64,000 nucleotides of DNA, taken from assembly GCF_019059575.1 (NCBI RefSeq), contig NW_024881854.1:62001-126000 (forward strand), read 5' to 3'. Positions 3,266 through 57,397 of the stretch are shown here, in pieces. Position 1 is the stretch's first letter, and every line of letters starts with the position of its first letter. The stretch is from Amphibalanus amphitrite (Eukaryota > Arthropoda > Thecostraca > Balanomorpha > Balanidae). The notes under the pieces are model-generated. The model was given only the letters and a program-made list of their open reading frames with translations, was not told the origin of the DNA and did not search any database. The position numbers and the translations under genes were made by a program.

Positions 3266-3379
3266 TTTTAGGGCATATGTTACCATCCTGTCGCGTTTTT
3301 TGCGTGTGAATAAAAAACCGAGGCGCGTAGCGCCGTGCCGCTTGGGGTAGCTTTTTGTACATCAGTTTTGAACAATGTT

Positions 3380-20319: not shown

Positions 20320-23300
20320 AGTTTCAGGAATTTCAGATGTATATTTTCGAATCATCCCACAAACGTGGCTTCATGTTTGATTCTTGTCAATGACAAAGTA
20401 CACAGATGAGGTTACGTCGGTGAGATAATAAAAATACAAATTGGCATGAAAGCTAAAATATAGACACTAAAATATGCGAAAGCATGTGACGCTGATAAAA
20501 GACGCTATATGAATATGTCCCTAAAAACAAAATGCGGGGAAGACGCCCTAAGGTGCATGCTTGTTCAGCGTAGAGATAAAAGCGGTTCTGCGGCTGCAGC
20601 CGGAGATGGATATGACGGCAGGCTATTCCAAGCGGAGGCGGCCCTGTACGAGAACGCACGTCGCGACATGGAGAGGCGAAATCCAGGCAGCTGGAGCGCT
20701 CCGGCGACACTGGACCGAGTCGCGCGCTCACTCACGCTACTGCGTGCCACGAACAGAGACCGGATCGCCACCGGAGCGCGGGGGTCGTGCAGGGCTCTAA
20801 AAACGCCCATACGATCGCGACGGGTAACCAGGCTTGACACACTGCGCCAACCAAGTGCCTCGAGAATCGGCGATGCACTATCACTGCGGCGCGCGCCTCT
20901 CACGATTCTGGCGGCGAAATTGAGCACCCTCTGGACTCGGGTCAGGCGGCACGCAGCGGCCCCTCCCCAGACGGACAGACAGTAAAGTATGTGGGGGAAA
21001 ACGTGGGCCTGGATAAGGAGTTTGCGGGTATCGGGAGTCAGATGATACCTAATTTTGTAAATGCAAAAAAGGATGGAATTGCACTTTTTGACAACGTGGG
21101 ATATGTGCTCTTCCCAGGATAGGGTATTGTCGATGGTAACTCCAAGCATTTTAACAAAGGGGGATGGTTTAAGGACGAAATCATTGACGTTTAATTGAAA
21201 AGATGCTGCTTTCTTAATGGATTGTGAGGTGCCTACGAGAAGGAGTGTAGTCTTAGTAGGATTCATTTTCAAGGAATTAGCTGTGAAGTAGGATTGAAGG
21301 GTAAGGATAGTATGTTCCTGTCTGGATTTCAGAAGGGGTAAATCATCAGGGTGAGCTGAATCCAGAAGCTGGGTGTCATCAGCGTAGCACACTACATGGC
21401 CGTGTGGGATATGGGACGGAAGGTCATTTGTGAAAACGCTGAAAAGGATAGGGCCGATTAGGGATCCCTGCGGGACGCCAAAGGTTATGGGAAGAAAAAG
21501 GGAACCACCCTTTACCATCTGCTGCCGCCCGTCGAGGTAGCTCGCAAACCACGTCGGATCGACACCGTGCCACTGAAGCTTGGTCACGAGAACATCGTGA
21601 TCAACAGTGTCAAAAGCCTTACTTAGGTCTATCGAGGTGACAGCGACAATATGACCAGTGTCAACACGACGGGTCATCCACTCTATAACATCAGTCACGG
21701 CGTCTTCCGTCGAATGACATGATCGGTATGCATATTGAGACGCAGAGAACAAATCATGGTGAGTAAAATAATCTGAAAGCTGTTTACAAACCACTTTTTC
21801 ACATAGTTTCGAAAGTGCAGGTAAAATTGCGATGGGTCTAAAATTACATGGCGAGTCGCGCGAGCCTGACTTGTGAATGGGAACAACGGACGCCATTTTC
21901 CATGCGGCCGGAAACACTTTGGATACAATGGACACATTAATGAGATGAAGTAAAATGGGCGCGAGAACAGCAAAACAGTTTCGAATCGCGAACAGCGGCA
22001 TGCCATCGACTCCAACCGCTCGCGATGATGACAGTTCATTGAGCGAGTTTGACAGCTCGGGTAGCGTTACAGGCTGTAGCACGAGTTCCGCGGAGGTGAC
22101 GCGGGGTGGCCTGGGTGATGGTGCCTCCTCATTGCAGCCATTCTCCCTCAGCTCATTAGCGAGGCGCTCACCGACTGACGCGAATTCACGGTTAAATTCG
22201 TCTGCCTTGTCCACGGTGAAAACATCAGACGCTCTACTTTTGTCAGGTCGCAAAGCAAGATTACGAATGTTGCGCCAAAAACTCGCACGATCTGACAGCA
22301 TAGAAGAACATAAAAATTCGCGCTGGGCCAAAGCCAAAAAACTCTTAACTCGGTTCCGGAGACGTCGGTAAGATAACAAATCAGCATTTACACCATAAGC
22401 TCGCCAGTCCCGGTACGCCTGATCGCGCTCGGACATCAGCTGTCTAAGTTCATGGTTGTTCTCAAGCCAAGGACAGTGGGGCCGACGGGGAGTCACCGTT
22501 TTCAGAGGGCAGAACACATCGATAGCTGCGGCCCACACGCTCATGAACACCTCCAGCTTGGCGTCAATCCCCGCCGCCCGGTACAACGGGGCCCAGTCGG
22601 CCTCCCTCCAACAGGTATAAACTGAGAGCGTCCCAGTTCACCTTGCGCCAGGGGCGAGCAGTGAACGGTTTTCTGTCAGGTTTGGCACGGCAAAAAGGCA
22701 CACGCACCAGGACTGTCAGGTGGTCAGCTATTGGCACCGAGGGCACCGTTACAGCGTTATTCAGGTCGGGTACATTAGTAACAATATGATCGAGAAGTGC
22801 GGGCGGATCAAAGTGAGTGGGAGAGCGAACGAGTTGAGCGAGGCATAGATCATTTAACATTGCTAGATATTGGCGTGTACCTGGCGCAGAGAGAGACAAA
22901 AGGTTAACATTAAAATCACCCAGGCAGAACACGGATCGGTCGGTGGCGATGGCAGCCTCCAGCTGATGGTGAAGTCGGTCCAGTCCGTCTGCTGTCGGCT
23001 GAGACGGCGGTCGGTAGACGACGCCCACGGTGACGGAGCGCCGCCCGCCGCCGCCGACGGACACCTAGAGTGACTCGCAGGACGAGCTGTCGCTGTCGAT
23101 GGGCAGGATGGTGCAGGTCAGGTTCTCCCGGTAGAGGACGGCGACGCCGCCACCGACGCCACCACCGACGCCACCGCCCGCCGCAGGTCGGCCCCGGCCC
23201 CGTCGGGCCGGTCGGTCTCGGCGCAAGATCGCGTACCCGGGGAACACCAAAAGTCTATCCGAGACTCGGTCGGAGAGCCACGTCTCAGTTAAGCACAAAA

Positions 23301-30200: not shown

Positions 30201-31562
30201 GACTCTGATCGCGCCGAAGAGGCTGAGCATCGCACAGACGCTGCGTGCAGCAGCAGCATCGCCCACCGACACCACGAGACCCAACCGCTCGCTGACCATC
30301 GGACACGCCAACGTCCGATCATTGGTTCCTAAGATGGACTTGGTCCAGCAGACTTTATCCGACCACAACATCGATGTTTTGTGCTTAACTGAGACGTGGC
30401 TCTCCGACCGAGTCTCGGATAGACTTTTGGTGTTCCCCGGGTACGCGATCTTGCGCCGAGACCGACCGGCCCGACGGGGCCGGGGCCGACCTGCGGCGGG
30501 CGGTGGCGTCGGTGGTGGCGTCGGTGGCGGCGTCGCCGTCCTCTACCGGGAGAACCTGACCTGCACCATCCTGCCCATCGACAGCGACAGCTCGTCCTGC
30601 GAGTCACTCTAGGTGTCCGTCGGCGGCGGCGGGCGGCGCTCCGTCACCGTGGGCGTCGTCTACCGACCGCCGTCTCAGCCGACAGCAGACGGACTGGACC
30701 GACTTCACCATCAGCTGGAGGCTGCCATCGCCACCGACCGATCCGTGTTCTGCCTGGGTGATTTTAATGTTAACCTTTTGTCTCTCTCTGCGCCAGGTAC
30801 ACGCCAATATCTAGCAATGTTAAATGATCTATGCCTCGCTCAACTCGTTCGCTCTCCCACTCACTTTGATCCGCCCGCACTTCTCGATCATATTGTTACT
30901 AATGTACCCGACCTGAATAACGCTGTAACGGTGCCCTCGGTGCCAATAGCTGACCACCTGACAGTCCTGGTGCGTGTGCCTTTTTGCCGTGCCAAACCTG
31001 ACAGAAAACCGTTCACTGCTCGCCCCTGGCGCAAGGTGAACTGGGACGCTCTCAGTTTATACCTGTTGGAGGGAGGCCGACTGGGCCCCGTTGTACCGGG
31101 CGGCGGGGATTGACGCCAAGCTGGAGGTGTTCATGAGCGTGTGGGCCGCAGCTATCGATGTGTTCTGCCCTCTGAAAACGGTGACTCCCCGTCGGCCCCA
31201 CTGTCCTTGGCTTGAGAACAACCATGAACTTAGACAGCTGATGTCCGAGCGCGATCAGGCGTACCGGGACTGGCGAGCTTATGGTGTAAATGCTGATTTG
31301 TTATCTTACCGACGTCTCCGGAACCGAGTTAAGAGTTTTTTGGCTTTGGCCCAGCGCGAATTTTTATGTTCTTCTATGCTGTCAGATCGTGCGAGTTTTT
31401 GGCGCAACATTCGTAATCTTGCTTTGCGACCTGACAAAAGTAGAGCGTCTGATGTTTTCACCGTGGACAAGGCAGACGAATTTAACCGTGAATTCGCGTC
31501 AGTCGGTGAGCGCCTCGCTAATGAGCTGAGGGAGAATGGCTGCAATGAGGAGGCACCATCAC
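27203..31562 (+). repeat. Third near-identical copy of the block (direct)
   Basis: This is offset by 14,773 bp from 12,430-16,789. It holds the foldback arm (27,203-28,535), block S (28,536-29,005), block T (29,006-30,083) and the LINE 5' half. It ends inside the LINE frame at a junction after GAGGCACCATCAC. Confidence 0.95.
30304..31562 (+). pseudogene. LINE ORF2 5' half, copy 4
   Basis: Endonuclease and the start of the reverse transcriptase region, identical to 15,531-16,789 and with the same TAG (30,610-30,612) and frameshift. The frame then runs through the junction into inverted 3'-flank sequence. The resulting 230-codon chimera (31,091-31,783) is not a gene. Confidence 0.9.
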
Positions 31563-32651
31563 ATGAGATTTTGGAGTCGGGAAAAATGGGGGGTACCTTT
31601 CTGAGAATGCCTGTGAGGTCAGACTCGTTCAAGCCAGAGTCGGACTCGCAGTCGCCAACATCGTCAAGACGCCGACTCCAGACTCGGAAATGTCAATACT
31701 CTGTGATTCATTCCATGTTCCAAGTTTCAGGAATTTCAGATGTATATTTTCGAATCATCCCACAAACGTGGCTTCATGTTTGATTCTTGTCAATGACAAA
31801 GTACACAGATGAGGTTACGTCGGTGAGATAATAAAAATACAAATTGGCATGAAAGCTAAAATATAGACACTAAAATATGCGAAAGCATGTGACGCTGATA
31901 AAAGACGCTATATGAATATGTCCCTAAAAACAAAATGCGGGGAAGACGCCCTAAGGTGCATGCTTGTTCAGCGTAGAGATAAAAGCGGTTCTGCGGCTGC
32001 AGCCGGAGATGGATATGACGGCAGGCTATTCCAAGCGGAGGCGGCCCTGTACGAGAACGCACGTCGCGACATGGAGAGGCGAAATCCAGGCAGCTGGAGC
32101 GCTCCGGCGACACTGGACCGAGTCGCGCGCTCACTCACGCTACTGCGTGCCACGAACAGAGACCGGATCGCCACCGGAGCGCGGGGGTCGTGCAGGGCTC
32201 TAAAAACGCCCATACGATCGCGACGGGTAACCAGGCTTGACACACTGCGCCAACCAAGTGCCTCGAGAATCGGCGATGCACTATCACTGCGGCGCGCGCC
32301 TCTCACGATTCTGGCGGCGAAATTGAGCACCCTCTGGACTCGGGTCAGGCGGCACGCAGCGGCCCCTCCCCAGACGGACAGACAGTAAAGTATGTGGGGG
32401 AAAACGTGGGCCTGGATAAGGAGTTTGCGGGTATCGGGAGTCAGATGATACCTAATTTTGTAAATGCAAAAAAGGATGGAATTGCACTTTTTGACAACGT
32501 GGGATATGTGCTCTTCCCAGGATAGGGTATTGTCGATGGTAACTCCAAGCATTTTAACAAAGGGGGATGGTTTAAGGACGAAATCATTGACGTTTAATTG
32601 AAAAGATGCTGCTTTCTTAATGGATTGTGAGGTGCCTACGAGAAGGAGTGT
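31563..32651 (-). repeat. Inverted LINE 3' segment, copy 4
   Basis: This is the reverse complement of about 17,660-18,741, holding the LINE 3' flank, 3' untranslated region and the C-terminal end of the reverse transcriptase on the minus strand (down to 31,968). On its right it joins, with a 2-bp TA overlap, sequence equal to 19,191 onwards. Relative to the intact copy, the LINE part 16,790-17,659 and the flank 18,742-19,190 are missing. Confidence 0.9.
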
Positions 32652-33175
32652 ATGGGGCATGGGCATACCCATTGAGCGGATAATGCGTTCGGGTGCATTA
32701 TCGTGTTTGCATTTATTCCCGATATACTCTGGTGGGAGATGTGAATTGAAAACCAACTTGGTGCTACGACACCGTTTAGTAGGCATGTGGCACGTCGTTT
32801 CTCGAAGACTTCCTATCAGTCTATGTATTGTAAACATTGTGTGTCATCTTTCACCTTAGTTGTCATTTGAACCTGTGTTAAATTCTGAACCTCAGACCGG
32901 AACAGACTAGGAAATCGCACGCGAGAGCCTATTCAAATTCATTAACCCTCGCCCGCACATGGGGGGGGGGGGGTGGTTGCCACCCCCCCAGGCAGTCTTT
33001 CTGCTCTGCACTCAACATTTTTAGAGCTAGAAGGCTGATTTTTCGTATAGCTGCTCGTCTATCCTTTCTTGATGTCCACTGAAAATTTCAAGTTTTTGTG
33101 ATTTTTGGTTTCGGAGATATGACCTTGTTTTTCAGGTCATGTCATGACCCAAATGGCCAATTCTCAACATTTTGC

Positions 33176-41624: not shown

Positions 41625-43260
41625 TCACATTTCCTTGATGAGGCGTTTGGGCGGCACCGGTCGCCGCTCAGACCGCCGTCTGCCCCCCGTCTCATCTCGC
41701 GCCCCGCCCCCCATCGCGCCGCTCGCCTGCTCCGGCTCGTCGGCACTGCCATCCTGGGCAGTTCCGGGGACGGCTCCCGCTTCTCCGCGCTCGTCCGGCC
41801 TACCGCCGCCGCCTCTCGCCGCGTGTCTCGCTTCCTCTCCTGCTCCTCCTTCGGCGACTGCTGCGCTCCGGTGCCAACGGGCGTCCGCTGCGCTCCGGTC
41901 CCAGCGGGCGTCCGCCGCGCTCCCGTTTGCCGCTCGGCTCCCGTCCGGTGCCTCCGTTCCGGTCGTTCCTGCCGTTCCGGTCGGTCCAGCCGCCAGCAGC
42001 TGGTCTGCGTGCCGCGACCACAGCGCGCTCCCGACGTCAATCTCGTAGGAGACGGGGCCTGTCTGCGCCGCTACCGCGCCTCGCCTCCACTTCTGTGGTC
42101 CGCCGTAGTTCCGCGCCCACAACGCGTCGCCGACGTTGAATTTTCTCGGCTGTCCGCCGGCTGCCGACCACTGGCGCTGCTGCTGGTCTCTGCTCCGCTC
42201 CTCCGGGTCTCGCCGCAGCAGGTCCAGGCGTGTCCGGACATTCCGTCCCAGCAGCATCTCGGCCGGCGACCGTCCGGTCACGGCGTGCGGCGCCGCACGG
42301 TAGGCCAACAGGAACTTCTGCAGCCTCCGAGACAGCGGGCCCCCGTCTCGCAGCGCCGCCTTCAGGCCGTTCTTTGCCGTCTGAACGGCCCGCTCAGCCG
42401 CTCCATTACTACTCGGGTGGTACGGTGCAACACGCACCTGCCGCACCCCGTTCAGCGCCAGGAACTGCACGAACTGGGCCGCTGTGAACTGCGGTCCGTT
42501 GTCAGACACCACCTGCCGTGGGATGCCGAACCGCGCGAACATCGCTCGCAGCTCGTTGATCGTTGCCTCACTGCCCGTGTCACGCATTGGAACCGCCTCG
42601 AGCCACTTAGTGTAACTGTCATACACTATCAGGTACATATTTCCATGGAACGGGCCGGCGTAATCGATGTGAATGCGCTCCCAGGGCCCTCCCGCCGGCT
42701 CCCAGGGGTGCAGCTCACTGCGGGGCGGCGCGCTGCGCTTCTCCGCGCAGCTGACGCAGTCGCGCGCCAGCCCCTCCAGTTCCGCGTCCAGACCCGGCCA
42801 CCACACATACCGGCGCGCCAGGTTTTTCATTTTCGAGCTGCCGAGGTGCCCCTCGTGCAGCTCCCGCATCACCGCCGCCTGCAGCCGCCGCGGCACCACC
42901 ACGCGACCGCCCCACACGAGGCACTCTCCGTCGGTGGTGAGCTCTTCCCGGCGGCGCCTGAACGGCTCCAGCTTGCAGAAGAGCTTGCCGCTCACTCCCG
43001 CGAACACGTCTTCTGGCTTCGGCAGTGGATGGTTTTTCACTATCAGCTGCGGGTTTACCGTGAGGTTGTAGCTCGCACAGAGCCTCACGCCGCCTCCCGG
43101 CTTCGGTACCGGCACCAGTGGTGTGCCCCAGCCGGAGCTCGTCTCCGACGGATCCACTTTCCTGGCGATGCCGTCTCTGACCCACCGGTCCAGCTCAGCC
43201 TCCACCTGCGGCAGCAGCGCGTACGGCACCGGGCGCGGTGCACACTGGGCCGGGGGCCCG
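41625..43260 (-). pseudogene. Gypsy pol remnant (RT part and integrase)
   Basis: This fossil minus-strand pol segment starts with an RT N-terminal region (AELDRWVRDGI and VPVPKPGGGVRLC). The integrase zinc-binding region and the catalytic core follow, with HIDYAGPF and VVSDNGPQFTA and a PYHPSSNGAAER motif. A GPVSYEIDVG region follows it. Similarity is to the Ty3/Gypsy family of invertebrates. It is incomplete and should be treated as a relic. The long plus-strand frame 41,823-43,289 is its shadow. Confidence 0.9.
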
Positions 43261-44911
43261 GAAAAGTGCTAGAAATTATCTGTGATTGAGTTGTTGGTCT
43301 CAGTGACAAGCAAACATGCTAAAAACGACGTGGGGCTGCTTAACCCTCGCCGGACCTATTGTCGGACCCCCCCCCCCCTCGGCCAGCCGAGGGGGGGAGG
43401 GTTGGTACGACCCCTTTTCGCCGTTTCGCCCCTAATGGAGCTAGAGCCTCGCGGAAAAAACAAGCGTGTGCGCCGTTTCAAGACGAAACGATTGATACCC
43501 GATTTTAAGGTCCCAGGTCAACCGGTAACCTCTGAGGTGAAGTCAAAAAGCCCAAGGTAGGGTTTAGTTTTTAGGAAATAATTTCGCAAAAAATGGCCGC
43601 AGTGCAGCGATTTTGGTTCCATCGTGTTCGCCTGGCTCAGGCGCGTCGAATGGTATACTTTTTGTCCGGGTGAGGTCAACTTAAGGTGTTGACCTCGAGT
43701 CAAGGTCAGTTCAGAGCCCATCAGGCCACGAACTTAATCGAAGGAAGTCGTATTGCATATCATTCGATTCGGGAGGTCTTCCCGAGTCCATTGGTGGCTT
43801 TCCCGAGTCGCTGGCTCAATTTGATCATGAGTTATTGACGAGAAACTCCTATGACCGTAGTGACGTCATAAATGACGTCACGGAAGGTCAAAAATGCAAA
43901 AGTAAAGCATCGGATCTTGCAAGGAGTGCATGAAATCACGATTCCGAGTGCTTGAGATAGTTTGAGATCATTTCATGCGCAAAAACAACAGTTTCCTTAT
44001 TTCCCCATTGACTTTTATTGGTGAGGTCACGTGACCTCGAAGAGTAGCAGGCATTAGCAAAAATTGCGAGTAGGGCATGACAGAAAGATGATTAGTGGTT
44101 TGTATGGCATGGTCATTTTTAGCGGCTCGAAATAACATTTCTCAAAAAGTCTGACTAAAGAGCAAGTTGTTGTTGATTATCATTGACTTGTGTTTGGGGG
44201 TTAATAACGACTGAATTTTTTAGTTTGGGCCAAAAATTTTAACAGCATTGTGTGCGTTGATCAATCCTGAGCTCAGGGACATATATTCTATTCTGATTAT
44301 ACGCGTTTGTTTTTCAAAACTTCCAGCGCTTTAAAGAGCGCCGGGCCTTCAGTAGAGCGGTGAGGTGACAATTGCCCCTACATCATGTGGTTTACTTGCG
44401 CATATCTCGAAAAGTAGCAGGGAAAAGCAGCAAAGCACCTATATGGAACGAAAGATGAGTAATCAGAGGCTAGTATAAAATGTTCATTTTTAGCTGCTCA
44501 AAATCACATTTTTATAAAAGTCTAATTAAAAAATTAGATATGATTTTTAATTACGTCTTGCAGCTGCTTGCAAAAAGCTAGCTTATCTTGCAGAAAAGCG
44601 ATGCAATATGTAAGAATGATGTTGGCACAGTGAACAACAGTGCCCTAAACTAGTCTGTGAGGAAATTTCGTTCAAAACGACGATTGGTCAGCTAATAAAT
44701 TACCACTGAAGATCATCATGAAAATCGGTAAATGTGGTGGCCACTAGAGAGTCTAAATTGTCTTGTGTTTGGTGACAACTGACGACCTCAATTTTGACCT
44801 TAGGGAAAAACTGGCATCGGAATCGTATTCTTCGATCAATTTGGGATTAAATGATACCTATTTTGTTCATATTGCGGAGAGTCAGTTTGGGGGAATTTCT
44901 AGCGCTTTTTC
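43261..44911. mobile_element. TIR element inserted in the Gypsy relic
   Basis: GAAAAGTGCTAGAAATT at the left and AATTTCTAGCGCTTTTTC at the right form inverted ends. Coding sequence of the Gypsy relic resumes immediately outside both. The interior has no gene. It contains a TTAA-MITE-like left end (43,340) and two similar blocks with ATTTTTAGCKGCTC (44,038-44,185 and 44,400-44,550). The superfamily is not clear. Confidence 0.6.
43340..44204. mobile_element. TTAA MITE-like segment
   Basis: TTAACCCTCGCCGGACC is followed by a poly-C/poly-G hairpin (43,369-43,399) and GGTCCCAGGTCAACCGG. Repeated TGACGTCA and GTGACCTC motifs follow. The right end proposed at GGGGGTTAA (44,197-44,204) lacks the usual subterminal hairpin and is uncertain. 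Confidence 0.45.
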
Positions 44912-46505
44912 AGGCTGCCGGCCTACAGTGCGGTGGCAGCCGCCGCGGCACAGCGCCCGGCTTCAGCGTCAGGTGCGCCTGGTGACTCATGACACCGAGC
45001 CCGTCCGCGAACACCTTCGCGTGCGCCGCCTTCACCGACTCCAGCGTCCGCCGGCCGCTTGCCCCGCCGACCTCGCTGACCTGGAACAGTGACCGCCAGT
45101 CCAGCCGGATCACCTGCAGCCAGTCCCGCCCCAGCAGCGGGCGGTGTCCCAGCTGGCTGCTCACCACCACGTCCAGTCGCCTCCGCTGGCCGCCGTACAG
45201 CACATCCACCGTGGCCTCGCCGCGCACGGGCACCGGCTGCCCTGTGAATGACCGGAGCTGCATCACGGACGGTCTCACCTCCAGTCCCGGGATGCTGCCG
45301 ACCGCCACGATCGACACCGGGGACCCCGTGTCCACCAGCATCTCCATCTGCCTGCCGTTGACGGACGCCGTGACCAGCGGCAGACGGTCCCGGCGCCGTG
45401 TGGCTGTCTGGTCCACCGCCATCACGATTTCTTCCACGGATGCCACCTGTCCGCGCTGAGGACAGTCCCGCTTCAGGTGTCCCGTGTCGCCGCACTTGAA
45501 GCAGCGCCTGCCGCCGCTCCTGCCACCGGGCGGGCTGCCGCGTCCGATGTCGACCCGCCGACCGCCGTCCGGCCGTCCGGACGCTCGGGAGCCGCCCGGC
45601 TCCTGTCCCGCTCTTGCCGCGGGGCCGTCGCCGTAACGGTAGCTGCCTCGGCCACCGTCTCTCCCGCCGCCGCCGTCGGCTGACCTGCCCGGCCGGGCTC
45701 CGTCCGGCTCCGAGCCCGTCCGGCCCGTCGGGCAGTCCCGCCGCCAGTGCCCCCGGCCGCCGCAGCGGAAACACGTGCCCGGGGGCACGGCTGACCGGCC
45801 GGCCTCGGGCCGCTGCGGGCGTCGCAGCGCCTGTACTGTGTCCTCGCCCGCCGCCGCCGGCTCCGGCGCCCCCGCCAACTGAGCTGCAAGATCCTTGACG
45901 TCTCGGAACGCACGCGCCGTCCTCCGGACGTCCTCCAGGGTGAGGCCAGCTCCCTTCACCGCCGCCTCACGCACCAGCTTCTGCTGTAGCTCTCCGCGGC
46001 CGGCCAGCACGCAGCGGTCGCGCAATTCACGCTCCACCTCCGCTGCCGTGTACCCGCAGCGCTGCACCTGCGCGCGGAGACGACCAAGGAACACCTCCAG
46101 GTCTTCATTTTCTTCCATTGCCATCGCTTGGAATTTGCCGCGCTCCGCGACGACGTTTCTTGTGGGTACGAGATATTTTGTCAGTTTCGTTTTCAGTCGA
46201 ACGAAGTCGTCGTCCGCCGCCTGGCCGTCCGGCTCCTCCGGCAGCGAGTCGGAGAGGTCCGCGATATCGGGACCGACCAGGTGTAACAGTAGGGCACACT
46301 TTCGGGCCGTGCTCTCGACCCCCATCGCCACCATATACCGCTCCAGTGACCTGAGCCATCTCTCAAAATCACTGCCCTGTCGGTATGGTGCCACCGCCAT
46401 CGCCTGCAGTCCTGCTCCCAGCTCCATGACGTCGTCGGACCCGAACAGCTGATCGCCGCTGTAGAGCCGGGCCGCCGCCCCCTCGCTGCACCCGCGCCGC
46501 CGCAC
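44910..46505 (-). pseudogene. Gypsy gag-protease remnant
   Basis: This fossil minus-strand reading holds a capsid-like region (FERWLRSLERYM and later), then two CCHC zinc knuckles (CFRCGGRGHWRRDC and CFKCGDTGHLKRDC). A retropepsin segment follows, with LVDTGSPVSIV and LLGRDWL. It belongs to the same Ty3/Gypsy relic as the pol remnant. The sequence is GC-rich compared with its surroundings. Confidence 0.92.
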
Positions 46506-46724
46506 CCGACCAGCTGATCACCGCCGCGGCACCCGGACCAGGCCCCCCAAACCGAGTTGGCTTCCCGCGCCGGCCTCCGCCTGCCAGCCAATCACGGGGC
46601 TAGACACAGCCAGCCGACCTGAGCCGACCAATCACAGGCCGCCGCCGGCCGCCGCTTCCGCGTTCACGTCCCTGCGCGGCATTCGCTGCACCAACAATAA
46701 CAAAACGGCCAATATTTCGAGAAA

Positions 46725-47385
46725 CAGGGGCGGATCCAGAAAATCTCCAAGGGAGGGGCCATTAGAAACCAGGAGGCCCCCCACCTGTTGGAGGCCCCAT
46801 CTTCCCACTTGTTGGGCCCCCCCCCCCCAAAAAAACTGCGTCTATTGAGCTTATCTAGCTGTTCAGTGGATGCGAGTGGAGGCCCTCTGTGGAGATTAAG
46901 AGGTCCTGTGTTGGCGAAGAGGATATCTGTGCAAGCTTGGAGTCCCTCTGTGCAGGATAGGAGACCTTCTGTGTGAGTTAGGAGGCCCTCTGTGTTGGCT
47001 AGGAGGCCCTTTGTTCGGATGCGAGTGGAGGCCTCTGTGTAGGCTAAGAGATTTTGTGTTTGTTAGGACATCTGTGCAGGCTTGGAGGCCCTCTGTGCAG
47101 GTTAGGAGGCCCTGTAAAAGTGGTCATCTCTGTGAGTATAAGAGACCTCCAAGTTATGAATAGCTTTACCAATCTTCTAACAAAGAAGTCTTCTCAGCTA
47201 GTCTTCTAACTCTAAGAAATAACTAAGTGGGTAGGTTAAAAAAACTCATCGGATTTCGGCCACTTTATTTTCAGGAGGCCCCCTTTTCAGCTTTTTAACT
47301 TTTTATTTTATTTTTGAAAAAAAATCGGCCAAGGGGGGGGGGGCCATGGCCCCCATGGCCCCCCCCCCCCTTGTATCCGCGCCTG
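46725..47385. mobile_element. hAT-like MITE in Gypsy leader
   Basis: The termini CAGGGGCGGATCCAG and TTGTATCCGCGCCTG are inverted repeats typical of hAT-type non-autonomous elements. Both sides carry the 8-bp duplication TCGAGAAA (46,717-46,724 and 47,386-47,393). The interior has a GGAGGCCCTCTGTG-type minisatellite (46,870-47,115) and a poly-G/poly-C palindrome near the right end. Confidence 0.92.
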
Positions 47386-47778
47386 TCGAGAAACATCACC
47401 AAACAGTATACCCGACAAGCAGCATCAATAAAAAATCACACACCAACAAAACAAAGAAACTTTTCTAATCCTGCGCCGACCACCACCGGTTTTTACACCG
47501 CCGTAATGGCTGTCACAGCCCAGCGCCGCCAAAACTCTGGGCCACCGCCCGGCGACCAACCCGACAGGCAACCGGTCTGTTCCGCCGCGACTGACACGCC
47601 CCGGCTACACACGTGCGCACTTTAGTGTCCACTCCAGACCCTGCGCCGTCCTCGAGCTGCCACTCGGACCGCGAACTTCACTGGCGTCTGTCCTGTCGGC
47701 GCCATCTTTTTGGCCTCCTCCGGCCGCCTCACGATTACCACGACTTAAAGCAACTAAATCTCATCTTCGTCGCCACGT

Positions 47779-48749
47779 TGTTACATCGTGGTCTCGTGAC
47801 AGACTGGCAGTTCTGGCTGACGCTGTATTCTTCTCAGCGATCAAACGTTAACACTGAACAGTACATCTCATTAGCTACTTCCGACCTTGGCCGGGGCCGT
47901 GCACCGACTGATGTACAGTGCTGCCAGATGGGGAAGGCTGTAATCCTCCATATCAGTTACAAAAATCCTCCAGATTCCTCCAAATCCTTTTGGTAGATAT
48001 ACCCGCCGTTCGATGTCTCTCGGACGGCGAAGATTCTACGTCGTCCGGCCAATCCCGTTCAAGGTCAGCAGGGGCTCGACTCCGGTTATGGAACGTGATT
48101 GGCCGGACGGACGTAGAATCTTCGTCGTCCGAGAGACATCGAACGCGGGGATAGAAAGGCGGTCTTGGACGCTGCGGGGGGCTATACCCCCAAAAAAGTT
48201 TCACCAAATTCTAAAAACTCATCGGATTTCGAATCCTTTCGCACTGCTGTGCAGATTAAAAGATACTTTTTCTTATAAAAGTTGTTGAGTTTTCCTTTTA
48301 TCTTTATAAAAAAATCGTCGATTTCGGGCGCTGCAGGGGGCCGGAGGCATTTGCCCCAAATGTCCCCCTTAGATCCGCCAGTAGTTTGGTACACTCGTAG
48401 ATATAGCTACAGACTGAGACATTCTGCAGTCTCACGGTGATGAAGGACGTGATATATCCTAACGGGTAGGGTGACGCTGGGCAGGAAAATGCCTTTTTAG
48501 TCTTGAATGTGTTATATTTTCCCATGAAATTGAATATAATAATCGGGCGACAAATCCTCCAGATTTTCCTCCAGAATCAAAAATCCTCCAAAAGCGAAAT
48601 TTGTCCGCAAATAGAGTTCAAAATCCTCCAGATTTGTGGAGATCCTCCAAATCTGGCAGCACTGCTGATGTAAACAACACCACAAACAGCTGACTGCCCG
48701 TAATGCTGGTCACACTAAAACGCTGCCAGTTACGGATAACGATACGACA
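47779..48749 (-). repeat. Gypsy 5' LTR, interrupted
   Basis: This is the right-hand LTR, 214 bp once the 749-bp insertion at 47,916-48,664 and its 8-bp duplication are set aside. It ends CGATACGACA like its partner. Confidence 0.93.
47916..48664. mobile_element. hAT-like MITE in Gypsy LTR
   Basis: CAGTGCTGCCAGAT and ATCTGGCAGCACTG are perfect inverted ends with the 8-bp duplication CTGATGTA on both sides (47,908-47,915 and 48,665-48,672). Inside is a hairpin with roughly 48-bp arms (48,007-48,054 and 48,098-48,145) around TTCGATGTCTCTCGGACG. Repeated CCTCCAAATC/CCTCCAGATT motifs lie at both ends. Confidence 0.95.
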
Positions 48750-48754
48750 ATTCT

Positions 48755-49241
48755 TTTCCTGCAAGGTTTCCATATGGAGATCACAGTCACACCATGAAGA
48801 AATATTTTTGATGTTAACAGTTGAAAGGGGATTTATCTTCCAGTTTTGACGAAAGACGCTGCTGACTGTCTTTGGAAAAGGATGTCGGCATGAGGTGCAA
48901 TTGTGCTTGTGAAGTGGTTATAACTGGTCTTTTCACAGTATTAAATTAAATGTGCCATTGCAGCCAAGTGTGTTATCATGTAAGGTAAAATCAAAACTAC
49001 AATGTTGGTTTTACGAGCATTGAGAAGGCTGGTAGGTAACACCTGCCTGTGCTCGTAAATCATGCTGCCAGAGTATTCTAAATAAATTTTATCATACACT
49101 TTTGTTGTCCAGAATGGTTGCACTATTGTTTGGTATCATATTATTCCATGTAAATATGGTAGTGTAAAGTCCGACCAACATGTTACCAGATTTGAAGCTG
49201 TTACGTTACCTAAGTACCTGTTTTTTACTGGCGTGGTGAAT
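48755..49241. other. No gene recognised
   Basis: AT-rich sequence between the Gypsy relic and the 135-bp array. No domain is seen in any frame. Confidence 0.5.
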
Positions 49242-50692
49242 GCGTATATTCGAATGCAGTATGAGTAGAGCATGGGTCCCGAAAAATTCTTCAGAAACTA
49301 GAGAAATTCTCGCGGGGCAGGACGTCTGTCAAACTAGCAGCGAGCTGCGAGCAGCGAGTCCAGCAGCGAGAAACGGGCCATCCCAATTTAGCTGAAAATT
49401 TGCTCACAGAGCTTTCTCAGCACGCTGATTCCGAAAATCATGGTCTCTAGTGTGGGAATCTTTACCGTTCTCGAGATAGAACCCTCTAAAGTTTTCGACA
49501 CCCATGACCGGGCCATCCCGATTTGGCTGAAAATTGGCTCACAGAGCCTTCTCAGCACGCTGACTCCGAAAATCATGGTCTCTAGAGTGGGAATCTTTAC
49601 CGTTCTCGAGATAGAACCCTCTATAGTTCTTACCACCCATGACCGAGCCATCCCGATTTGGCTGAAAATTTGCTCACAGAGCCTTCTTAGCACGCTGATT
49701 CCGAAAATCATGGTCTCTAGGGTGGGAATCTTTACCGTTCTCGAGATAGAACCCTCTAAAGCTCTTACCACCCATGACCGGGCCATCCCGATTTGGCTAA
49801 AAATTGGCTCACAGAGCCTTCTCAGCACGCTGATTCCGAAAATCATGGTCTGTAAGGTGGGAATCTTTACCGTTCTCGAGATAGAACCCTCTAAAGTTTT
49901 CGGCACCAAAGACTGGGCCATCCCGATGTGACTGAAAATTGGCTCACAGAGCCTTCTCAGCAAGCTGATTCCGAAAATCATGGTCTCTAGGGTGAGAATC
50001 TTTACCGTTCTCGAGATAGAACCTCTAAATTTCTTACCACCCATGACCGGGTCATCCCGATTTGACTGAAAATTTGCTCACAGATCCTTCTCAGTTCTCA
50101 GCACGCTGATTCCGAAAATCATGGTCTCTACTGGGTAGGAATCTTAACCGTTCTCAAAAAAGAAACCTCTAAAATTTTCGACACCACCCAGTAAACATGC
50201 CGACGTCGGCCCGACGTCGGCCGACGTCGGGGTGACGTCGGCAACTCGGCATCAGCATGCCGACGTCGGCCCGACGTCGGTCCAACCTCGGCACGACGTC
50301 GGCTGGATGTCGGATATGCCCGCATGTTCCGACGTCCAGCCGAGGTCCAGCCGACGTCGGGCCGACGTCGGACCGAGATAAATTGCTGAGGTCCAGCCGA
50401 CGTCGGGCCGACGTCGGGGCGACGTCGGACCGACATCGGCCGCTATTTTGACCGTTAAAATAATATAAAATACATGTTTCATGGTTCATAAAGAGCTTCT
50501 GTATTCAAAATATCCTCAGGAAACTCAAATCTTCCTCCACGCCGCAACCCCCTGATCCGGACTGGACGGGAAACTTTATCCCATTTGGGATTGCCCGTAA
50601 GCCGAGCTCGCCCGTAGCCGGGTGCGGTGAGTGCTTGGGGGCTGCTCGGCCTGTCCTTTGGTCAGGCTCAGCCCCGGCAACTCACCAGGGCC

Positions 50693-50883
50693 GGGCCCAG
50701 TTCATATAGAAAGGCCAGTCGGCAAGTGTCACTTTGCCAAAGTGCCACTTATCAAAGGGACACTTTGGGAAACGTTGGTGCAGGTGTGTAAGAGTGGCTA
50801 TATGAATCCATTGTGGGGTCGCCCTTTCCAAAAAGTGTCACGTAACAGCAATGGGACCATGGACTCTATATGAACTGGACCCA
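50693..50883. mobile_element. Small inverted-repeat element
   Basis: GGGCCCAGTTCATATAGA at the left pairs with TCTATATGAACTGGACCC at the right. About 190 bp, rich in AAGTGTCACTTTG-type internal repeats. No target duplication was identified. Confidence 0.55.
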
Positions 50884-50997
50884 GGGTGCTCGCCAAGAAG
50901 ACCAATGTCTCCATCCTATGATCCTTCCGGCTCTGAAATGGTCTTGTCAGACCGAAAGGGCATAACGCAACAAAACAAAACGATTTCGTTAGCTGGC

Positions 50998-51068
50998 TGC
51001 GTGGTGTAGTGGTTAGCGCGCTAACCTCGCGTGCGAACGACACGGGGTTCGAATCCCATCGCCGGCTG
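50998..51068 (+). ncRNA. tRNA-derived SINE head
   Basis: A box TGGTGTAGTGG and B box GGTTCGAATCC are at tRNA spacing and the D stem pairs, but the anticodon stem does not form and the acceptor stem has mismatches. A related B-box fragment (GGCTCGAATCC) lies at 51,119. Both are followed by GCCGGYTGATRYTTTTGGCG, which shows a shared SINE tail. Confidence 0.55.
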
Positions 51069-54000
51069 ATGCTTTTGGCGTGTTGTCCCAGTAAACATGC
51101 CGACGTCGGCGACTGGGGGGCTCGAATCCCGCCGCCGGTTGATATTTTTGGCGCGTTGTCCCCATTAACATGCCGACGTCGGCCCCGTCGGTCCAACGAC
51201 AAACGATCTCGTCAACCTCGGCAAACGATCTCGGCCCGACGTCGGCTCGACGTCGGCTGGACTTCGGCTGGACGTCGGAACATGCGGGCATATCCGACGT
51301 CCAGCCGATGTCGGGCCGAGGTTGAACCGACGCTGGGCCGACGTCGGGCCGAGCCTCGGCCCGACGTCGGGCCGACGTCGTCATGTTTACTGGGCAATGA
51401 CCGGGCCATCCCGATTTGGCTGAAAATTGGCTCACAGAGCCTTCTCAGCATGCTGATTCCGAAAATCATGGTCTCTATAGGGTGGGAATTTTTACTGTTC
51501 CCGAGATAGAACCCTCTAAAATTCTTACTTCCCATGACCGGGCCATCCCGATTTGGCTGGAAATTTGCTCACAGAGCCTTCTCAGCACGCTGATTCCGAA
51601 AATCATGGTCTCTAGGGTGGGAATCTTTACCGTTCTCGAGATAGAACCCTCTAAAGCTCTTACCACCCATGACTGGGCCATCCCGATTTGGCTAAAAATT
51701 GGCTCACAGAGCCTTCTCAGCAAGCTGATTCCGAAAATCATGGTCTCTAAGGTGGGAATCTTTACCGTTCTCGAGATAGAACCTCTAAATTTCTTACCAC
51801 CCATGACCGGGTCATCCCGATTTGACTGAAAATTTGCTCACAGATCCTTCTCAGTTCTCAGCACGCTGATTCCGAAAATCATGGTCTCTAGGGTGGGAAT
51901 CTTAACCGTTCTCAAAATAGAAACCTCTAAAATTTTCGACACCAATGACCGAGCCATCCCGATTTGGCTGAAAATTGGCTCACAGAGCCTTCTCAGCATG
52001 ATGATTCCGAAAATCATGGTCTCTATAGGGTGGGAATTTTTACTGTTCTCGAGATAGAACCCTCTAAAATTCTTACTTCCCATGACCGGGCCATCCCGAT
52101 TTGGCTGAAAATTTGCTCACAGAGCCTTCTCAGCATGCTGATTCCGAAAATCATGGTCTCTAGGGTGGGAATCTTTACCGTTCTCGAGATAGAACCCTCT
52201 AAAGCTCTTACCACCCATGACTGGGCCATCCCGATTTGGCTAAAAATTGGCTCACAGAGCTTTCTCAGCACGCTGATTCCGAAAATCATGGTCTCTAAGG
52301 TGGGAATCTTAACCGTTCTCGAGATAGAACCCTCTAAAGTTCTTACCACCCATGACCGGGCCATCCCGATTTGGCTGAAAATTTGCTCACAGAGCCTTCT
52401 CAGCACGCTGATTCCGAAAATCATGGTCTCTCGGGTGGTAATCGTTACCGTTCTCGAGATAGAACCCTCTAAAGCTCTTACCACCCATGACCGGGCCATC
52501 CCGATTTTACTGGGATGGCCCGGTCGATTTGACAGACCATGATTTTCGGAATCAGCCGCAGCGTGCTGAGAAGGCTCTGTGAGAAAATTTTCAACCAAAT
52601 CAGGATGGCCTGGTCATGGGTGTCGAAAACTTTAGAGGGTTCTATCTCGAGAAGGGTAAAGATTCCCACCCTAGAGACTATTATTTTCGAATCAGCGTGC
52701 TTAGAAGACTCTGTGAGCAATATTTCAGCCAAATCAGGATGGCCCGGTCTTTGGTGTCGAAAACTTTAGAGCGTTCTATCTCGAGAACGGTGAAGATTCC
52801 CACCCTAGAGACCATGATTTTCGGAATCAGCGTGCTGAGAAGGCTCTGTGAGCAAATTTTCAGCCACATCGGGATGGCCCGGTCATGGGTGGTAAGAATT
52901 TTAGAGGGTTCTATCTCGAGAACGGTAAAGATTCCCACCCTAGAGACCATGATTTTCGGAATCAGCGTGCTGAGAAGGCTCTGTGAGCCAATTTTCAGCC
53001 AAATCGGGATGGCCCGGTCATGGGTGTCGAAAATTTTAGAGGTTTCTATCTCGAGAACGGCTAAGATTCCCACCCTAGAGACCATGATTTTCGGAATCAG
53101 CGTGCTGAGAACTGAGAAGGATCTGTGAGCAAATTTTCAGCCAAATCGGGATGGCCCGGTCATGGGTGGTAAGAAATTTAGAGGATTCTATCTCGAGAAC
53201 GGTAAAGTTCTCACCCTAGAGACCATGATTTTCGGAATCAGCTTGCTGAGAAGGCTCTGTGAGCCAATTTTCAGTCAAATCGGGATGGCCCGGTCTTTGG
53301 TGCCGAAAACTTTAGAGGGTTCTATCTCGAGAACGGTAAAAATTCCCACCCTAGAGACCATGATTTTCGGAATCAGCGTGCTGAGAAGGCTCTGTGAGCC
53401 AATTTTTAGCCAAATCGGGATGGCTCGTTCATGGGTGGTAAGAGCTTTAGAGGGTTCTATCTCGAGAATGGTTAAGATTCCCACCCTAGAGACCATGATT
53501 TTCGGAATCAGCGTGCTAAGAAGGCTCTGTGAGCAAATTTTCAGCCAAATCGGGATGGCCCGGTCATGGGTGGTAAGAACTATAGAGGGTTCTATCTCGA
53601 GAACGGTAAAGATTCCCACTCTAGAGACCATGATTTTCGGAGTCAGCGTGCTGAGAAGGCTCTGTGAGCCAATTTTCAGCCAAATCGGGATGGCCCGGTC
53701 ATGGGTGTCGAAAACTTTAGAGGGTTCTATCTCGAGAACGGTAAAGATTCCCACCCTAGAGACCATGATTTTCGGAATCAGCGTGCTAAGAAGGCTCTGT
53801 GAGCAAATTTTCAGCCAAATCGGGATGGCTCGGTCATGGGTGGTAAGAACTATAGAGGGTTCTATCTCGAGAACGGTAAAGATTCCCACTCTAGAGACCA
53901 TGATTTTCGGAGTCAGCGTGCTGAGAAGGCTCTGTGAGCCAATTTTCAGCCAAATCGGGATGGCCCGGTCATGGGTGTCGAAAACTTTAGAGGGTTCTAT

Positions 54001-54231
54001 CTCGAGAACGGTAAAGATTCCCACCCTAGAGACCATGATTTTCGGAATCAGCGTGCTGAGAAAGCTCTGTGAGCAAATTTTCAGCTAAATCGGGATGGCC
54101 CGTTTCTCGCTGCTGGACTCGCTGCTCGCAGCTCGCTGCTAGTTTGACAGACGTCCTGCCCCGCGAGAATTTCTCTAGTTTCTGAAGAATTTTTCGGGAC
54201 CCATGCTCTACTCATACTGCATTCGAATATA

Positions 54232-56475
54232 CGCCTGGGAGCTCCTATCTGCAAGCCGCACAACTGCAGCCAATGTAGCCGCCCAGTGGACTCTCAAGGT
54301 CACCATGGACTCTCTTGCAAAAAGTCAGCCGGGCGCCTTCCACGTCACGCAAACCTCAATGACGTGGTAAGGCGTGCGCTGACCAGCGCAGGAATGCCCT
54401 CCATCCTTGAGCCACAGGGACTCGACCGAGGGGACGGCAAGAGACCGGACGGCGTCACTCTCTTCCCATACAGGCAGGGAAAGAGCCTCGTGTGGGATGC
54501 AACCTGCGTAGACACATTTGCCGACAGCGCCGTTGCAAAAGCCGCCCTGGAGCCAGGCTCACCAGCGGCAGCCGCGGAAGCTCGCAAAAGAACGAAGTAC
54601 GCAGATATTGCCGAAAGGCACATCTTCGTCCCAGTGGCCGTAGAAACTACCGGAGTGCTGGGACCAGCGGCCACAGCCCTCCTGGCAGAGCTGGGCAGGA
54701 GGATCTCTGAGCTCACAGGAGATCGTAGAGAGGTCGCCTGGCTGCGGCAGCGCGTGTCCTTGGCCATCATTCGGGGAAACGCTGCGGCCATCCTAGCAAC
54801 AGCATGCTCAACTCAAGAGGGCCGGGTTCCCCGGAAACCAACTAAACAAGTCACCAGCAAAACATCAACGGAGTCGAGTGACGCCAGAGACTCCAGCTGC
54901 GCTGATAGCCAGAAAACGAATCAGCCACCATCACATCCCAAGTCTGTTGAAAGCAGCAAGGTGCGGGCACAGCAGCGTTATGACGGGGTGGCACGGACCG
55001 CCAGCCGTGAGGCACAATCGCTCTCGGCTACTCGACAGCAAGAGGCGGACTGGAAAAGCGGTGACCCGTTATACATCGGTCTACCTAACCATGGCAACAC
55101 ATGTTACCAGAACGCTGCGCTGCAGTCACTGTTGGGCCTGCATCCATTTCTGAGTGAGATGATGTCGCTGATCTCCGGTCCTTGTCAGTGGGAAAGTGGC
55201 CAATGTGACACTACGAGCGCTGTTGCCAAACTTATGGTGCTCCGACAAAAGGCGCTCACTGAGTCAGTCGCTACCCACCTCAAACAGCTGCACGAAGTGT
55301 TTGCCGACATGGACCCGGTGTACGGTGGCACAGAAATGCAGGACGCCGGCGAGTTTTTGCTGCGCCTTTTGGGCACCATGAGCGACGAGATAGATGCGTG
55401 CCACCTGACGGATAACCCGGTTCGAGAACATTTTCAACATCAGATCCTGGAGAGTAAGACGTGCATCAAATGTGGTCAGACGGTTATGAAGCACCTGAAT
55501 AACATCTGCTGGTTTGTCAACGTGCCACGCCGCCAGAGCACCGACATACCGACACTGCAGGAAGCGCTACATCTCAGCATGTGCCCCGAACGACGCACCA
55601 TGCTCTGCCAGCACTGCGGCCACGATGAATCCTGCGTCACCTTGAAGATCAGTCAGCTACCCAGGACTCTGATCCTGCAGCTGAATCGCTGCGCCTTTCT
55701 TGGAGATAGGCCCAAGAAGATCCGTGCCAGTGTTGGTATTCCTAAGATTTTGTCCTTAAATAAGTACGTCGCAGGTGAGGTCACCGATTCCCTACATCGG
55801 CGCCCAACAATGGGCACGCTCAGCGACGCCGAGGAGTCTGAGCCGGACCACTCAGGACTACCGCTCGCCTCTGGACCGTCACCTCCAGTTCGAGCTGCCA
55901 CTCCGCTGGATCCAGTCGGGGCCACAGCACCACTGCGAATCACGACATCGGTTCCTTCCTCGTCAGAGGTGGCTGCAGCAGAGATGTCAATACCGCCATC
56001 CAAGCTAGACCTCGCCGAATCCGAGTGGAAGCCGCCACAGACTAACGAAGACAAAAACTGTGAACCGCAGGAGGTTAAAATACGGCAAACAGAAGTGACA
56101 GAGGCCTCTGAACAGGCACAGCTGCCAGAGCCCCACGCGGGGGATAACCTGTCGCCGTGCCCGGCGAACCTGGCCGGTGACCACGCGTACCAGCTAGTAG
56201 GCGTGGTAAGCCACTATGGCGACGATACTCACGCGGGCCACTTCGTGGCCACCGTTTACAGCGCTGAACGCGAATGCTGGTTCCGCTACGATGACCACCG
56301 AGTTAGTCGAATCCGCGAATCGGATGCACTCGGTGAAAGCCAGCAGAGAGATGGCTACATGTTTTTCTACACACTTGAAAAGTTGCGACCCCAGACAGAA
56401 AAGTGGCCAATGCCGAAATGTCAGCAACGGCTATGGAGCGGGGAAGGGGCCGCACTCACCCGTAAGTGTTTGTAA
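54232..56475 (+). CDS. REL-type endonuclease domain fused to ubiquitin-specific protease (5'-partial)
   Basis: This is one uninterrupted frame of about 748 codons; residues are counted from a GTG at 54,286. No ATG opens it: the domain starts at 54,232 (RLGAPICKPHNC) and the frame is open back to a TGA at 54,145. Upstream cysteines and HHGLSC resemble the zinc motif before the restriction-like endonuclease of R2-type LINEs. KRPDG (52-56), WDATCVDT (70-77) and RKRTKY (100-105) fit PD-D-K. From about 265 there is a full USP domain: Cys273 in GNTCYQN, QDAGEF (352-357), CxxC pairs 393/396 and 441/444, His652 in HAGHFVA, and Asp670 in FRYDDHRVS. YQLVGVVSHYG resembles USP37-type enzymes. USPs remove ubiquitin from proteins. 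There are no introns, and an A-tract follows at 56,577. I infer a 5'-truncated LINE that captured a deubiquitinase. The exact family is not identified. Confidence 0.8.
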   Translation, partial: RLGAPICKPHNCSQCSRPVDSQGHHGLSCKKSAGRLPRHANLNDVVRRALTSAGMPSILEPQGLDRGDGKRPDGVTLFPYRQGKSLVWDATCVDTFADSAVAKAALEPGSPAAAAEARKRTKYADIAERHIFVPVAVETTGVLGPAATALLAELGRRISELTGDRREVAWLRQRVSLAIIRGNAAAILATACSTQEGRVPRKPTKQVTSKTSTESSDARDSSCADSQKTNQPPSHPKSVESSKVRAQQRYDGVARTASREAQSLSATRQQEADWKSGDPLYIGLPNHGNTCYQNAALQSLLGLHPFLSEMMSLISGPCQWESGQCDTTSAVAKLMVLRQKALTESVATHLKQLHEVFADMDPVYGGTEMQDAGEFLLRLLGTMSDEIDACHLTDNPVREHFQHQILESKTCIKCGQTVMKHLNNICWFVNVPRRQSTDIPTLQEALHLSMCPERRTMLCQHCGHDESCVTLKISQLPRTLILQLNRCAFLGDRPKKIRASVGIPKILSLNKYVAGEVTDSLHRRPTMGTLSDAEESEPDHSGLPLASGPSPPVRAATPLDPVGATAPLRITTSVPSSSEVAAAEMSIPPSKLDLAESEWKPPQTNEDKNCEPQEVKIRQTEVTEASEQAQLPEPHAGDNLSPCPANLAGDHAYQLVGVVSHYGDDTHAGHFVATVYSAERECWFRYDDHRVSRIRESDALGESQQRDGYMFFYTLEKLRPQTEKWPMPKCQQRLWSGEGAALTRKCL

Positions 56476-56587
56476 TGTGGTGGCGTCAGGATGGTATGTG
56501 CTTAGAAGCGCCAATCCTTATCTTGTTACATTGTTTACACGGGATTGAAAGTGCCCATTCACATATTTTGCGATTGAAAAAAAAAAA
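56476..56587 (+). other. 3' tail of the REL-USP element
   Basis: About 100 bp of 3' sequence with GGGATTGAAAGTG and GCGATTG, ending in a run of eleven A at 56,577-56,587. This resembles the 3' end of a retrotransposed transcript. Confidence 0.5.
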
Positions 56588-56619
56588 TCAAGAGAGAACA
56601 ATCGTCATTCTTTTGGTAT

Positions 56620-56770
56620 CTGTGATGCCAGTCTCCAGAAATCTCCAGATTGCGTTCCAGCGCCTCCAGTGAAACCTCTGGTAGAGCCTCCAGTCAAGAA
56701 TTTCTACTGGAGGCACTGGAACAGGCCCATTATGTAATTCTCACCGTGGTGTGATATACACGCGTCCGCG
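56620..56770. repeat. CTCCAG repeat plus TGTGTAAATCACACC-type module
   Basis: CTCCAGAAATCTCCAGATTG, then CTGGAGGCACTGGAACAGGC, then a CACCGTGGTGTGATATACACG module. This is the inverted counterpart of the element at 40,424-40,794, in shorter form. Confidence 0.6.
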
Positions 56771-57397
56771 AGAAAAAGTGGGTGCAGTTATTTTTTTACA
56801 TCTTAGTTTTTGTTTACGCGTTTTTAGACGTTTCTCGGCGCACTGTTGTTGAAGTTATACAGGCCTATTTTACAGCTATTTTTGATTCACAAAACTGCTG
56901 CAATTTTTATAACTTTTTTTGCATATTGGCATTTTGATGGAATTGGAATGCATTAAAATATTTTCATTCTTAAATCTCGAATGCCAATATAATAACAATG
57001 TGAATCGAGCCACGCTCGTAGTGAAATATTACGAATCAATGATAACAACAGAAACAGTACTACCGGCATAAAATATGTAGTTACCGCGATTGTATAATAT
57101 AATACTGTATGTTCCGCGTGAAATTGACAGGAGATACCGCAAGAATAATAGCCTAAACAAATATTGAAATAACTGAAAGCTCATGATACCCGATTAGCAC
57201 TGCTAACGCTGACCATTTTCTTCGATCATTAAATGCTTACCATAGTCCATACCATAACATCTGAAGATAATGAACTTGAACCTCGAAAAGCGAGTTGTCC
57301 AGTTTCAGTCTCAGTTTGTGCGGTACTGGGACACATTCATTATCAGTGAGTCAAATAAAAATTGTCCGGGGCATCATGCTGTGATCATATGAACCAG
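56771..57397. other. AT-rich stretch, no gene recognised
   Basis: No domain or clear repeat is seen. Confidence 0.5.

What the first reader, a model, noticed from the sequence alone, without database searches (positions are those of the whole stretch)
54232..56475. Retrotransposon-type endonuclease fused to an intact deubiquitinase
Seen: one open frame carries a zinc-motif plus PD-D-K block (KRPDG, WDATCVDT, KRTKY), then a USP domain with Cys box, QDA box, two CxxC pairs, His box and the final Asp, with no intron and an A-tract downstream. Known: some LINEs carry OTU or Ulp1-type cysteine proteases, and restriction-like endonucleases sit at the C-terminus of R2-type LINEs. Inferred: this is the 3' part of a LINE whose polyprotein ends in endonuclease plus USP. 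A USP in this position is not something I know to be described. It could protect the element's proteins from ubiquitin-directed decay or cleave the polyprotein.
Basis: partly seen in the sequence, partly recalled or inferred. Interest (0 to 1): 0.88.

Follow-up and report, generated by a model that had tools for sequence, protein, structure and literature searches.

The report
Retrotransposon endonuclease joined to a deubiquitinase
One unbroken reading frame joins a piece that looks like the DNA-cutting end of a jumping gene to a complete ubiquitin-removing enzyme, which hints that a mobile element may have picked up a host regulatory enzyme, although no second copy could be found to prove it.

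Summary
Window 54148-56475 (+) is one open frame of 775 codons. Its first part has the signature of the restriction-like endonuclease (RLE) of R2-type LINEs as described in PMC5678591: CX2CX8HX4C knuckle, RH, PD, D and KX2KY, but GVL where GXW is expected. After an 84-residue linker comes a complete USP domain (Pfam UCH, E 7.9e-42, profile 1-254 of 254) with Cys, QDA, two CxxC, His and Asp boxes. An 11-A run lies 101 nt past the stop.

New: the element-like part begins exactly at the end of a 4,993-bp foldback element (49242-54234) with 132/132 identical inverted ends. So the 5' part of the frame is cut off, and a reverse transcriptase could be neither seen nor excluded.

Not shown: repeated copies, an attached RT, selection, or activity. 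The protein database was off and the genome search unreachable; viral and prokaryotic collections gave no relative. Best reading: 3' remnant of an RLE-type LINE whose frame ends in a USP; a one-off chimera is the main rival. A C19 domain on a DNA transposase is in print (PMC2836005); my searches listed none on a LINE. Partly supported; a likely new variant, resting on one locus.

The parts
54148..56475 (+). single open frame, 775 codons stop to stop; codons up to 54234 lie in the foldback element's inverted end
54265..54318 (+). zinc knuckle CSQC-SRPVDSQG-H-HGLS-C (CX2CX8HX4C)
   Evidence: spacing rule CX2-3CX7-8HX4C from PMC5678591 section 8
54340..54600 (+). RLE core: RH (54343), E of LEP (54406), RPD (54442), WD (54493), KRTKY = KX2KY (54586)
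   Evidence: motif descriptions from PMC5678591
54652..54660 (+). GVL at the place where LINE RLEs and Prp8 are said to have GXW: not met
54811..55062 (+). 84-residue Ser/Thr/Gln/Lys/Arg-rich linker between endonuclease and USP
55075..56370 (+). USP (UCH, peptidase C19) domain, full profile 1-254, catalytic and zinc boxes present
   Evidence: Pfam UCH 7.9e-42; PDB USP8, USP12 and others; boxes
55765..56178 (+). 138-residue Pro/Ser/Glu-rich insert inside the USP domain, where USP8 has only a few residues
56577..56587 (+). 11-nt A tract, 101 nt past the stop; no AATAAA or ATTAAA at 56476-56800
49242..54234 (.). foldback element with 132/132 identical inverted ends and 135-bp satellite arrays, abutting the endonuclease part; no target duplication at its borders

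Best explanation
The locus is the 3' remnant of an RLE-type non-LTR retrotransposon whose single frame ran reverse transcriptase - zinc knuckle - restriction-like endonuclease - linker - USP deubiquitinase. The sequence shows the last four parts in one frame. Inferred: the reverse transcriptase lay upstream and was separated when a foldback element landed in the copy and one side was lost by rearrangement (or mis-joined in assembly across the satellite arrays). Inferred function: the endonuclease nicks the target for target-primed reverse transcription, and the USP acts in cis to take ubiquitin off the element's own protein, lengthening the life of the RNP, or off chromatin or repair proteins at the nick.
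For: One frame over both domains, far above chance length. Knuckle spacing and RH, PD, D, KX2KY as PMC5678591 describes for RLE LINEs. USP boxes intact and full profile covered. Third-position GC similar in the endonuclease (0.617) and USP (0.645, 0.612) parts, a weak point. A-tract 101 nt past the USP stop, as expected if endonuclease and USP belonged to one reverse-transcribed RNA. Element-like coding starts exactly at the foldback end, which suggests a longer copy cut by it rather than a chance 5' truncation.
Against: No RT in frame; none in 10 of the 19 left-flank frames of 55 codons or more that were scanned, and tblastn of the frame finds only the inverted end there. No second copy in any collection that answered (with 66, 68); these hold viruses and prokaryotes, so they could hardly contain one. 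GXW not met (GVL). RLE part not recognised by Pfam or PDB. No target duplication of the foldback element, so its two flanks may not belong together. GTAAGT at 56462 is what an exon end would show. A codon-usage test scored the true frame highest in only 1 of 5 parts.
Confidence: 0.48

Rival explanations
1. Chimeric retrogene: a LINE reverse transcriptase started on the poly(A) end of a host USP mRNA, then jumped to a LINE RNA at the end of the endonuclease code, giving one chimera that happens to be in frame. The USP is then no part of a replicating element.
For: A-tract after the USP; USP code in one unbroken frame; a disordered-looking linker at the join. The linker lacks stops in another forward frame too, so staying open there is not hard.
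Against: Needs the join to be in phase and stop-free: about 2% for the 84 codons at local composition (6% without a stop, times one third). It also needs an intact full-length USP domain.
Confidence: 0.27
2. Host gene: a LINE endonuclease fragment was exonised or domesticated onto a host USP gene, and the frame seen is a large exon of it.
For: Intact frame; GTAAGT donor-like site at 56462, next to the end of the frame; USP domain complete.
Against: The 5' end of the element-like coding part is a foldback-element end, not a splice acceptor; an A-tract follows the stop; about one GTRAGT is expected by chance in a stretch this long (my arithmetic; one found).
Confidence: 0.13
3. Artefact of assembly or accident: an element fragment, a USP retrocopy and the satellite arrays are mis-joined or abut by chance.
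For: Near-identical 135-bp arrays next door, 132/132 identical inverted ends without target duplication, and near-identical inverted duplications elsewhere in the window are places where assemblies fail.
Against: The endonuclease-USP join itself lies in sequence found once in the window, about 700 bp from the last array, within one open frame.
Confidence: 0.12

Closest known systems
RLE-type LINEs of the R2, NeSL, Hero, CRE and Utopia groups (PMC5678591; PMC4640811)
   Same: Knuckle CX2CX8HX4C followed by a PD...D...KX2KY endonuclease with RH near its start
   Different: No RT visible here; GVL for GXW; a USP follows the endonuclease, whereas PMC4640811 section 9 (read) describes RLE at the C-terminus and, in one Utopia family and in nematode NeSL families, an N-terminal Ulp1-like protease
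Elements with cysteine proteases that act on ubiquitin or SUMO: Ginger1 (OTU or Ulp1 at the transposase C-terminus), Mutator (Ulp1), some Helitrons (OTU); passages of PMC2836005 read
   Same: Deubiquitinase-like protease joined to an element's enzyme, at the C-terminus in Ginger1
   Different: OTU and Ulp1 folds, not USP; DNA transposons, not an RLE endonuclease
Trichomonas vaginalis XP_001314237.1, transposase_11 plus peptidase C19, as told in PMC2836005
   Same: USP-type (C19) domain fused to a mobile-element enzyme
   Different: Protist DNA transposase instead of a LINE-type endonuclease
Cellular USPs (USP8, USP12, USP46, USP18 by PDB match; USP37-like by recall only)
   Same: Complete USP domain with the same boxes
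   Different: Fused behind a LINE-type endonuclease; long Pro/Ser/Glu-rich insert

Membership tests
RLE-type LINE | CX2-3CX7-8HX4C knuckle before the endonuclease | tested here: met
   CX2CX8HX4C at 54265-54318 (rule)
RLE-type LINE | PD and D catalytic residues | tested here: met
   RPD 54442, WD 54493; by motif only, no structure
RLE-type LINE | KX2KY with the catalytic K | tested here: met
   KRTKY 54586-54600 (rule)
RLE-type LINE | RH at the start of the first helix | tested here: met
   RH at 54343 (R2Bm has RH there); helix not verified
[quoted passage not shown]
   E of LEP at 54406 fits by position only; no usable structure
RLE-type LINE | GXW beyond the fourth strand | tested here: not met
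   GVL at 54652 (rule)
RLE-type LINE | reverse transcriptase upstream in the same frame | tested here: inconclusive
   none present, but the frame is cut at 54234 by a foldback element; other copies could not be searched
RLE-type LINE | multicopy, or inserted at a recognisable target | not testable with these tools
   protein database off, genome search unreachable
USP (UCH, peptidase C19) | profile match with Cys, QDA, His and Asp boxes and two CxxC pairs | tested here: met
   PF00443 7.9e-42, full profile; boxes; PDB matches
USP (UCH, peptidase C19) | deubiquitinating activity | not testable with these tools
   needs an assay
USP37-like subfamily | closest relative by phylogeny | not tested
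   recall only; no relatives could be fetched

The most novel reading that the evidence does not exclude
A lineage of RLE-type LINEs has captured a host USP deubiquitinase as a C-terminal domain behind the endonuclease, and replicates with it, so that the retrotransposon carries its own ubiquitin-removing enzyme to shield its RNP or to edit chromatin ubiquitin at the target nick.
Probability: 0.42. Interest if true: 0.68.

Novelty: new variant of a known kind. Interest (0 to 1): 0.5.

Why it matters
OTU and Ulp1 proteases recur on mobile elements (PMC2836005, PMC4640811), and their role there is, as far as the passages I read say, a suggestion. A USP attached to a LINE endonuclease would be a further deubiquitinase family reached by capture, which would argue that removing ubiquitin helps transposition itself. 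Because USPs have well-known substrates and inhibitors (general knowledge), the idea could be tested directly.

Tried and rejected
Rejected: the RVT_1 frame at 16267-18336 (copy 20568-22637, fragments 31040-31771 and 31971-32663) as the missing RT. It has no similarity to the endonuclease part (best BLASTP E 1.1), and the only RLE-type motif string in the window is the one at 54265-54600. Rejected: RLE LINE code in the left flank of the foldback element. No open frame of 110 codons or more lies wholly between 48286 and 49390; tblastn of the 775-aa frame (E up to 1) finds only the inverted end there; Pfam on 10 of the 19 frames of 55 codons or more overlapping 47000-49241 gave no match above a curated cut-off and no RT. 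Pfam was run on 21 frames of the window in all, the finding included, out of 127 of 110 codons or more plus shorter ones, so an RT elsewhere in the window is not excluded. Rejected as first choice: polyprotein self-cleavage by the USP (single GG, no ubiquitin domain).

Led nowhere: the search for related loci on viral contigs with the endonuclease and with the USP (7 and 2 pattern matches, 0 confirmed) and on genome contigs with the whole frame (8 matches, 0 confirmed); the strict endonuclease DNA pattern in viral contigs and genome contigs (0 each); the loose pattern in viral contigs (25 loci; best tblastn E 0.039 over 25 residues; I judge them chance). AF2 on single sequences was too poor to search folds with, so no fold search was made. 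Codon-usage discrimination: the true frame scored highest in 1 of 5 parts, so it gives no support. tRNA and Rfam scans: 0.

Literature: ten searches, of which 34, 46, 60 and 69 showed only the best 20 of 46, 80, 54 and 3,032 papers. In the titles and abstract beginnings listed I saw none that described a USP on a LINE. Read: outline, abstract and section 9 of PMC4640811; 12 of 17 passages and section 8 of PMC5678591; 12 of 14 passages of PMC2836005; the 3 and 8 passages found in PMC5718144 and PMC6338049; term counts only in PMC12062965 (five whole-word terms, all zero; main text only, and whole-word matching would miss 'deubiquitinase'). One paper on the R2 endonuclease was not held.

Full report
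What is there. The + strand has one open frame from 54148 to 56475, 775 codons. The two other forward frames over 54232-56475 hold 22 and 38 stops, and the reverse frames 22, 19 and 29. First-order-Markov sequences gave at most 272 codons in 40 generated 64-kb windows and 283 in 400 generated pieces of local composition. The frame is therefore coding in origin, or recently so.

Endonuclease part. Pfam does not recognise it, and PDB gives no significant match (best E 0.87). [quoted passage not shown] The window has CX2CX8HX4C, RH, E (by position), RPD, WD and KRTKY, in that order and in one frame; in place of GXW it has GVL. The string knuckle-RH-PD-D-KX2KY occurs once in the window and in 0 of 40 generated windows, with the caveat that the pattern was written after seeing the sequence. 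I take it as an RLE-type endonuclease by descent, at about 0.85. From recall, not from any call, similar KRPDG...WD.T endonucleases end RT-bearing LINE proteins in several invertebrates.

USP part. Pfam UCH matches at 7.9e-42 over the whole profile, and solved USP8, USP12, USP46, USP18 and others match. The Cys box, QDA box, both CxxC pairs, His box and final Asp are present. A 138-residue Pro/Ser/Glu-rich insert interrupts the domain where USP8 has only a few residues. I see no reason in the sequence to call it inactive; activity is untested.

The join. An 84-residue Ser/Thr/Gln/Lys/Arg-rich linker connects them. The chance that 84 codons of that composition hold no stop is about 6%, and in phase 2%. 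One other forward frame of the linker is also free of stops, so this is weak evidence. A codon-usage comparison gave no support: the true frame scored highest in 1 of 5 parts. The sharper point is the A-tract: 11 A at 56577-56587, 101 nt past the stop, one of three A-runs of 9 or more on this strand in 64 kb. It suggests that the USP end is the 3' end of a reverse-transcribed RNA. There is no AATAAA or ATTAAA at 56476-56800. Against this, a GTAAGT lies at 56462, next to the end of the frame.

49242-54234 is a foldback element: its outer 132 bp are inverted repeats, 132 of 132 identical, enclosing 135-bp satellite arrays. Its right end falls on the CGC that serves as the Arg codon at 54232, so the endonuclease part starts exactly there. 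A LINE copy truncated by chance within a base or two of another element's end is unlikely; more likely the foldback element inserted into a longer copy (inference). But its left flank carries no open frame of 110 codons or more between 48286 and 49390, Pfam on 10 of 19 shorter frames there shows no RT, and there is no target duplication at its borders (the TATA and ATAT matches in that output lie inside the arms). The two flanks thus seem not to belong together: recombination between arrays, or an assembly join. The upstream part, where a reverse transcriptase would be, is missing from this place, not shown to be absent from the element.

Relatives. None could be obtained. The protein database was off and the genome search did not complete. 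The collections that did answer are viral and prokaryotic and gave no relative (with 66, 68).

How it most likely works. Shown: endonuclease motifs and an intact USP domain encoded in one frame. Inferred: in the complete element, an RT in front and target-primed reverse transcription started by the endonuclease. Inferred: the USP removes ubiquitin from the element's own protein (most likely, about 0.35 given that the fusion is real), or from chromatin or repair proteins at the nick (about 0.25), with the rest unassigned. Cleavage of the polyprotein is least likely (0.1 or less), since USPs cut after ubiquitin's Gly-Gly and no such site or ubiquitin domain is visible. [quoted passage not shown]

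Compared with the known. RLE LINEs with an N-terminal Ulp1-like protease exist (PMC4640811, section 9). Ginger1 transposons have C-terminal OTU or Ulp1, and PMC2836005 mentions a T. vaginalis transposase with a C19 domain, which is a USP-type domain; so a USP on a mobile element is not without precedent. I saw no USP behind a LINE-type endonuclease in the papers listed, four of which (34, 46, 60, 69) showed only the top 20; the library holds open-licence papers only. LINE membership is probable but not proven: GXW is not met and the RT test is inconclusive.

Verdict. Real observation, interpretation partly supported, likely a new variant of a known kind, resting on one locus.

Noticed in passing
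1-32652: Nested near-identical inverted duplications (for example 12427-18585 against 26479-20319 at 99.97%, 1443-3271 present four times at 100%): a recent palindromic duplication or an assembly artefact.
   Followed up: partly
16267-18336 (+), 20568-22637 (-): 690-codon frame with RVT_1 (5.6e-30) and no RLE motif; looks like a LINE of the CR1/jockey kind (kind by recall), in two identical copies plus two fragments.
   Followed up: partly
41628-46517 (-): LTR retrotransposon, Gypsy-like (kind by recall): integrase, H2C2, aspartyl protease and CCHC knuckles in two frames.
   Followed up: no
49242-54234: Foldback element with 132/132 identical inverted ends, three arrays of a 135-bp satellite (the last in the opposite orientation to the first two), and 11-bp CCGACGTCGGC-type repeats between the first two; no target duplication.
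   Followed up: partly
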